Of a stretch of DNA of 41,467 nt, positions 625 through 15,949 are shown piece by piece; within the stretch, counting starts at the first letter, position 1, and each line of letters opens with the position of its first letter. The notes under the pieces were generated by a model. It saw only the letters and a program-made list of their open reading frames with translations. It ran no database searches and was not told the origin of the DNA. Both the position numbers and the translations under genes were made by a program. This DNA comes from Akkermansia muciniphila (GTDB lineage: Bacteria; Verrucomicrobiota; Verrucomicrobiia; Limisphaerales; SIAT01), in the NCBI GenBank assembly GCA_945900775.1, contig CAMDJP010000025.1, positions 1 to 41,467 on the forward strand. The letters are read 5' to 3'.

Positions 625-1020
625 CTATATTCCGGGCGGGAAAAATCGCGCTCCGTAAGTATCAGCGAGGATGACGCGGGCGCGTTCTTTCCGATCCACC
701 CAGAGCAGTGTGCCATCGGTGGTGATGGCGAGCAGACCGTGGTTTTCGTTTCCGAGCAAGTGAACCGCCAGCACGCTTTGATGATTAACGCCGGCCACGA
801 TGAACGGCTTTGTGTAGAGAAAAAGTTTTGGCGAGCCGGTTGTGGGCAACACCCCGGTCTTCAAGTAGGCCGGTCTCGCAGCGATCAGCGCCTTCGCTCC
901 CGCGAGCACGCGCTCTGTGCGAAGCGTCTGACTGTATCCGAGCGAGAGCAACAGTAGCGTCACCATCGGAACGATGACGAGCAGCAGCGTAAAAAACTGA
1001 CGGCGTTGAGGCGCGTCCAT
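625..1020 (-). CDS. Small single-pass membrane protein of unknown function
   Basis: 131 residues. A short charged N-terminus (MDAPQRRQ) is followed by one strong hydrophobic helix at about residues 9-30, then a soluble domain, probably periplasmic, with alternating hydrophobic residues typical of beta strands. I do not recognise the family. The stop lies 27 bp before the copper lipoprotein gene on the same strand, so a role in the same pathway (copper or respiratory oxidase assembly) is possible but only inferred from position. A TACAGT hexamer ends 6 nt before the ATG, with TTGTCC 16 bp further upstream, suggesting a promoter with almost no 5' leader. Confidence 0.6.
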   Translation of the reverse strand: MDAPQRRQFFTLLLVIVPMVTLLLLSLGYSQTLRTERVLAGAKALIAARPAYLKTGVLPTTGSPKLFLYTKPFIVAGVNHQSVLAVHLLGNENHGLLAITTDGTLLWVDRKERARVILADTYGARFFPPGI

Positions 1021-1054: not shown

Positions 1055-1160
1055 GCCCAACCGCGCCGATGTTCACAGATTGAGCCTCCATCATCAGCAA
1101 AGGGAACGGGCCGTGAGCAGCCTCGCTGAAAGGTACGCAGCGAGATTCCCTGCCGGTGCC

Positions 1161-1682
1161 TTAGAGAAGTTTCTTGAACCCCTCGAGGGTTAGCCCGGCG
1201 GCGCGAACGATGGCCGCCATCATGTAATTCTCCACTGGGCTAGCACGCGGTACGACCACCACGCGACCGTTCTCGTCATTCATCAGAATCAGAATGAGAT
1301 TGTTTTCTGGCTCGTTGTCTTCCAAGAAAAAGTTGTTTTCGTATCCCACCTTTTGCAGTGCCTTCACGACGCAGAGGTGGTCCAGATTTTGAAGCCCTTT
1401 CCTTCGCAGAACCTTCACGGCATGAGCGTGCATCTGGGCATCTTGGGCATCTGTCCGGTTGCAGCGTTTTCTGTCTCGTTGACTTCGCCGTATATCGTCA
1501 GGGTAGATATCAATACAGTCGAGCCACCTGTTCATAGTAGCGACGTGGTTTTCCTGGGCCTCCTCGACCGTCGCCCCATGAGAATGGCAGCCGGGAAAGT
1601 TCGGGCAACTCACGAACACGCCCTCCCTGTGCTTCAGAAAGACGACACGAAACGGTCCGTAAAACAGGGGGGAGGATTTCAT
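1161..1682 (-). CDS. HicB-like antitoxin domain joined to a degenerate HicA-like domain
   Basis: 173 residues. Residues about 10-56 match the HicB antitoxin fold: a short strand region, then SCPNFPGCHSHG and TVEEAQEN, as in the usual 'PELPGChtqG-T-eEA-eN' pattern. After a basic linker (about 57-90), residues about 103-171 resemble a HicA mRNA-interferase: VVKALQKVGYE, then GRVVVVPR, then AAIVRAAGLTLEGFKKLL, which is the typical HicA ending. The catalytic Gly-Ser-His segment between the first two blocks is missing; an acidic insertion (EDNEPENN) lies there. Normal loci encode HicA and HicB as two proteins. The product is therefore probably not an active toxin and may be a domesticated regulator. 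It lies 44 bp downstream of xylose isomerase on the same strand. HicB part fairly sure; HicA part is my reading of a pattern. Confidence 0.7.
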   Translation of the reverse strand: MKSSPLFYGPFRVVFLKHREGVFVSCPNFPGCHSHGATVEEAQENHVATMNRWLDCIDIYPDDIRRSQRDRKRCNRTDAQDAQMHAHAVKVLRRKGLQNLDHLCVVKALQKVGYENNFFLEDNEPENNLILILMNDENGRVVVVPRASPVENYMMAAIVRAAGLTLEGFKKLL

Positions 1683-1690
1683 GCACGGAA

Positions 1691-1716
1691 GGTATATTCC
1701 CTCGCCGGCAAGTCAA
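1691..1716 (-). promoter_or_regulatory. Possible promoter of the HicB/HicA-like gene
   Basis: On the minus strand TTGACT (1711-1716) precedes TATACC (1691-1696), which ends 8 nt before the ATG at 1682. The 14-bp spacer is shorter than normal, so this is tentative. It would make the gene independent of xylA, whose stop is at 1727. Confidence 0.25.

Positions 1717-14417: not shown

Positions 14418-15949
<1,532 letters not shown>

What the first reader, a model, noticed from the sequence alone, without database searches (positions are those of the whole stretch)
1161..1682. HicB-like antitoxin and HicA-like toxin domains in one chain, with the toxin histidine lost
The sequence shows a HicB pattern at residues 10-56 and a HicA-like C-terminal pattern at 103-171 (VVKALQKVGYE, GRVVVVPR, AIVRAAGLTLEGF). 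HicA's catalytic Gly-Ser-His is replaced by an acidic insertion. Canonical hicAB encodes two proteins. A covalent antitoxin-dead-toxin fusion could be a domesticated DNA-binding or RNA-binding regulator; that role is inference.
Basis: partly seen in the sequence, partly recalled or inferred. Interest (0 to 1): 0.62.

Follow-up and report, generated by a model that had tools for sequence, protein, structure and literature searches.

The report
Fused, toxin-dead HicB–HicA relic
A bacterial antitoxin gene and its toxin gene, normally separate neighbours, have merged here into one reading frame whose toxin half has lost its catalytic histidine; such fusions are already known, and this one looks most like a fast-decaying leftover of a mobile toxin-antitoxin pair.

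Summary
Window 1161-1682 (-) is one 173-codon frame with a HicB domain (residues ~10-57) and a HicA-fold domain (~98-173). Both halves match the adjacent two-gene hicB-hicA pairs of Verrucomicrobiota, at 45-54% identity to the closest group. AlphaFold2 plus Foldseek puts the C-terminal half on a HicA-fold structure (1whz, TMt 0.83) and the N-terminal half on HicB structures. The catalytic His, present in 79 of 81 scorable relatives, is replaced by a longer acidic stretch. HicBA fusions are not new: Gerdes 2024 (PMC10865869) defines them as Class 12. What differs here is the dead toxin half and the isolation: no other open full-length fusion of this subtype appeared among the Verrucomicrobiota sampled, both congeners lack the gene at the xylA site, and its end branch is about 19 times the median. 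Linker and acidic insertion share a 21-nt repeat found nowhere else in the genome. Best reading: an acquired hicBA module that fused, lost its toxin activity and evolves under relaxed constraint (probable relic). A retained antitoxin-like or decoy role is possible. The "domesticated DNA/RNA-binding regulator" idea has no positive support.

The parts
1161..1682 (-). Fused hicB-hicA open reading frame, 173 aa
1512..1655 (-). HicB-like antitoxin domain, residues 10-57 (partial RNase-H fold: three strands and a helix)
   Evidence: Pfam PF15919; 45-52% identity to nearest HicB; fold match 2dsy, 6g1c, 6g26
1392..1511 (-). Linker, residues 58-97, about 18 residues longer than the hicB tail plus hicA start of the nearest pairs; weak codon bias (third-position GC 0.47 over residues 61-100)
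   Evidence: low model confidence at 73-94
1164..1391 (-). HicA-fold domain without the catalytic His, residues 98-173 (helix, three strands, two helices)
   Evidence: 45-54% identity to nearest HicA; fold match 1whz, TMt 0.83
1299..1340 (-). Acidic stretch NNFFLEDNEPENNL (residues 115-128) in place of the catalytic G.H segment
1302..1322 (-). Copy 1 of a 21-nt direct repeat, inside the acidic stretch
   Evidence: 19 of 21 identical to copy 2; only these two places in the genome at up to 3 mismatches
1466..1486 (-). Copy 2 of the 21-nt repeat, inside the linker, in another reading frame
1062..1716 (.). 655-base segment absent from the same site in congener G002
   Evidence: blastn of flanks, 79% and 86% identity, with about 20 bases in its place

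Best explanation
A two-gene hicB-hicA toxin-antitoxin pair of a subtype common in Verrucomicrobiota (the layout of Gerdes Class 2: hicB first, small HicB without a DNA-binding domain) came to lie downstream of xylA in this lineage. In most pairs of this subtype hicB and hicA lie in one frame separated by a single stop codon, so loss of that stop together with local insertions at the junction merged them into one frame (Class 12 layout). An insertion replaced the catalytic G.H stretch of HicA, so the C-terminal half should no longer cleave RNA. With the toxin dead there is no addiction pressure, and the frame evolves under relaxed constraint: if translated at all, the protein is most likely inert, or weakly antitoxin-like at best. 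Shown: both domain homologies, the single open frame, the missing His, the absence from congeners, the long branch, the shared repeat. Inferred: that it was gained rather than lost twice, that RNase activity is gone, and that no function is selected.
For: Homology of both halves to hicB-hicA pairs; stop codon between the two genes in the related pairs and none here; His present in 79 of 81 scorable relatives and absent here; end branch 2.49 against a median of 0.13; at sites invariant in the nearest group, codon positions 1 and 2 have changed alike (16 of 81 and 28 of 97), without the usual sparing of position 2; weak codon bias in the linker; 21-nt repeat shared by the two non-homologous stretches; empty site in G002 and, with a contig starting at the xylA end, in G001; hicA genes with stops or a lost His also occur among relatives, so toxin loss is recurrent in this subtype.
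Against: The frame is open over 173 codons with several in-frame insertions relative to the nearest pairs. In a rough neutral simulation the 114 core codons stayed free of stops in only 12-16% of runs. The hydrophobic pattern of the HicA fold is kept and the codon-position composition of the two domains is gene-like. Third positions changed more often than first and second in all comparisons.
Confidence: 0.6

Rival explanations
1. A retained, functional dead-toxin fusion: the HicB half still binds or neutralises related HicA toxins and the dead HicA half serves as structural partner or decoy (an anti-addiction protein).
For: Open frame, in-frame indels, predicted folds of both halves kept. Gerdes 2024 argues that some Class 12 fusions are under selection (PMC10865869). 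Related hicBA pairs are frequent in the class (162 of 384 genomes at E<=1e-6), so there would be toxins to neutralise.
Against: No relative with the same fusion, very long branch, no sparing of codon position 2, absent in both congeners. The one other hicBA pair seen in this genome is of a distant subtype (26% identity over the HicB stretch).
Confidence: 0.25
2. A working fused toxin-antitoxin: HicA activity is retained through other residues and the HicB half controls it in cis, as in CapRel-type fused systems.
For: Domain order and sizes match Class 12 HicBA, for which a CapRel-like mechanism has been proposed (PMC10865869).
Against: The catalytic His and the basic stretch around it are gone.
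Confidence: 0.04
3. A domesticated DNA- or RNA-binding regulator.
For: Position 44 bases downstream of xylA on the same strand would allow co-transcription. The HicA fold resembles double-stranded-RNA-binding domains.
Against: No DNA-binding domain found. The stretch that carries basic residues and His in active relatives is acidic. Congeners have the same xylA neighbourhood without it.
Confidence: 0.06
4. Assembly or sequencing error that joins two genes.
For: The genome is a 74-contig draft, 91% complete, and no second allele was available.
Against: The missing catalytic stretch, the longer linker and about 50% divergence along the whole frame cannot come from a few base errors; no other frame holds an intact hicA.
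Confidence: 0.03

Closest known systems
Class 12 fused HicBA (Gerdes 2024, mBio, PMC10865869)
   Same: One gene encoding a small HicB domain followed by a HicA domain; similar total size; probably derived from Class 2 pairs
   Different: The toxin half lacks the catalytic His and has an acidic insertion; longer linker; the class's member list was not available for a direct comparison
Class 2 two-gene hicBA pairs of Verrucomicrobiota (nearest: L102, L103, L109, L110, L114)
   Same: Gene order, both domains, 45-54% identity
   Different: Those are two genes separated by a stop codon, and their HicA keeps the G.H motif
Synechocystis Slr1999 (PMC4963859)
   Same: HicA and HicB domains in one protein, read by its authors as the fusion of a two-gene operon without fused homologues elsewhere
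   Different: Sequence not compared here; no loss of the toxin site was noted in the passages read
CapRel and EzeT fused toxin-antitoxins (as described in PMC10865869)
   Same: Toxin and antitoxin in one chain
   Different: Unrelated toxin domains, which are active

Membership tests
Class 12 fused HicBA | Single open frame: small HicB domain, then HicA domain | tested here: met
Class 12 fused HicBA | HicB domain without a DNA-binding domain | tested here: met
   No HTH or RHH match; none in the model, whose linker is of low confidence
Class 12 fused HicBA | Clusters with other Class 12 sequences | not tested
HicA toxin (PF07927) | Helix-strand-strand-strand-helix fold | tested here: met
   Model and 1whz match; the alignment steers the model, and the fold without alignment is of low confidence but similar in order
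HicA toxin (PF07927) | Profile score at or above the curated cut-off | tested here: not met
   12.9 bits against 27
HicA toxin (PF07927) | Catalytic His in the G.H motif | tested here: not met
   Present in 79 of 81 scorable relatives, absent here
HicA toxin (PF07927) | RNase activity and toxicity | not testable with these tools
   Needs an expression test
HicB-like antitoxin (PF15919) | Profile score at or above the curated cut-off | tested here: not met
   22.8 bits against 27
HicB-like antitoxin (PF15919) | HicB fold and the conserved CP-x-x-x-GC-x-S signature | tested here: met
   CPNFPGCHS at residues 26-34; fold matches 2dsy, 6g1c
HicB-like antitoxin (PF15919) | Neutralises a HicA toxin | not testable with these tools
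   Needs a rescue test

The most novel reading that the evidence does not exclude
A toxin-dead HicB-HicA fusion kept by selection as an anti-addiction protein: the HicB half neutralises incoming HicA toxins while the acidified, dead HicA half stabilises it in cis.
Probability: 0.15. Interest if true: 0.6.

Novelty: new variant of a known kind. Interest (0 to 1): 0.3.

Why it matters
If it is kept by selection, it is a toxin-antitoxin module turned into a single harmless protein. If it is a relic, it shows how a hicBA pair, whose two genes often sit in one frame a single stop codon apart, can fuse and lose its toxin. Either way it warns against counting every fused HicBA frame as a working toxin-antitoxin system.

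Tried and rejected
A tandem copy of the first HicA helix (AVKVLRRKG and VVKALQKVG, 51-nt shift) was considered and dropped: alignment with the nearest pairs explains the stretch before VVKALQK as the ordinary hicA start region, and that repeat does not stand out against shuffles. A frame-shifted remnant of the hicA start in the linker (MPKMP in another frame): a shifted alignment wins only at a frameshift penalty of 15 or less; against 200 shuffles its gain has p about 0.045, while no shuffle reached its total score; left open. A possible second open fusion, G511:C44, turned out to be a HicB-like domain with a different tail, downstream of an intact hicA. Searches with this protein alone found no relatives in genome contigs or viral contigs and only two weak HicB hits in plasmids. 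Rfam and promoter scans of the region found nothing, and one terminator-like site is at chance level. PADLOC has no match.

Full report
What is there. Window 1161-1682 on the minus strand is a single 173-codon frame whose ATG lies 44 bases after the stop of a xylose isomerase gene on the same strand. Pfam gives a sub-threshold HicB match (PF15919, 1.1e-4) and, for the C-terminal half alone, a weak HicA match (PF07927, 0.12).

Relatives make the case. A search of 388 genomes of the phylum with the protein itself found two-gene hicB-hicA loci whose products match its two halves (loci read). A profile from such pairs was then run through 384 genomes of the class with stops read through: among the listed matches, those that cover the whole profile carry one or two in-frame stops, and the window gene alone has none (phylum sample). 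A scan of the named genome collection found 478 relatives and kept 80 loci; 50 were translated, and the pairs show a stop after hicB, usually directly before the hicA start, with a few pairs shifted in frame. A profile built without the window protein fits the window frame over positions 3-136 of 136. 'No other fusion' therefore means none in these samples.

Nearest group. Five pairs from Verrucomicrobiota records (L102, L103, L109, L110, L114) are 45-52% identical in the HicB half and 45-54% in the HicA half. The tree places the window protein with them (support 91/90), but on an end branch of 2.49 changes per column against a median of 0.13, so the placement is unsure.

Structure. With 22 relatives in the alignment, AlphaFold2 gives strand-strand-strand-helix for the N-terminal half and helix-strand-strand-strand-helix-helix for the C-terminal half, with low confidence at 73-94 (mean pLDDT 69.8). 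Foldseek matches the model to 1whz (TMt 0.83, rmsd 1.8, E 4e-3), which I recall as a HicA-like Thermus protein, and to HicB structures 2dsy, 6g1c and 6g26. No hit passes E 1e-3, and the relatives steer the model. Folded alone, without relatives, the C-terminal half is poorly predicted (pLDDT 48) but shows a similar order of helices and strands.

The toxin site. The His of the G.H motif is present in 79 of 81 scorable rows from 79 loci. In the window the segment RQGKH of the relatives is replaced by a longer stretch rich in Asp, Glu and Asn. That His is the catalytic residue is established knowledge of HicA; loss of activity here is inferred, not tested.

How it arose. In the related pairs hicB and hicA are mostly in one frame with a stop codon between them, so fusion needs little change. 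The window gene also has an eight- to nine-residue N-terminal extension, a longer linker and insertions in the HicA half. Linker and acidic stretch share a 21-nt repeat (19 of 21; 1302-1322 and 1466-1486, read in different frames) that occurs nowhere else in the genome at up to 3 mismatches. A match that good was reached in 0 of 1000 codon shuffles and 1 of 500 dinucleotide shuffles. The repeat had been noticed before this null was run, so the figure is somewhat flattering. A local duplication into one of the two places is the simplest reading (inference).

The site. In congener G002 the flanks align at 79% and 86% identity, with about 20 bases in place of window 1062-1716. In congener G001 the next gene starts 90 bases after the xylA stop, with no room for hicBA. 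One gain, or two losses; gain is favoured by parsimony on three genomes only.

Relic or retained. For relaxed constraint: the long branch, change at codon position 2 as frequent as at position 1, the weak codon bias of the linker, no conserved fused relative. For retention: the open frame, in-frame indels, the kept hydrophobic pattern, more change at third positions. I put the relic reading at 0.6.

Known or new. Gerdes 2024 (PMC10865869) describes fused HicBA as Class 12, suggests some are under selection and compares them with CapRel. A fused protein was noted in Synechocystis in 2016 (PMC4963859). A word search of the Gerdes paper for 'inactive' and 'catalytic histidine' found neither. Hence: a toxin-dead variant of a known layout, of modest interest.

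Noticed in passing
L002 1471-1877 (G000:C2, around 15106-15512): The same genome has a separate hicB gene followed by a hicA-like frame with an intact GSHH motif, of a distant subtype.
   Followed up: partly
L084, L101, L103, L108, L122, L146: Several related hicA genes have an in-frame stop (L084, L101, L103, L146) or a lost His (L108 Gln, L122 Pro), so loss of the toxin seems recurrent in this subtype; sequencing error in draft genomes is not excluded.
   Followed up: partly
L106, L118, L134, L135, L138, L140, L141, L143, L145, L148, L149, L150, L156: The same hicBA subtype occurs in Cyanobium and Synechococcus-type cyanobacteria at 58-69% identity (best segment) to a Verrucomicrobiota pair, which suggests transfer between phyla.
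   Followed up: no
window 625-1020 (-): A 131-aa frame with no Pfam match is conserved next to xylA in both congeners.
   Followed up: no
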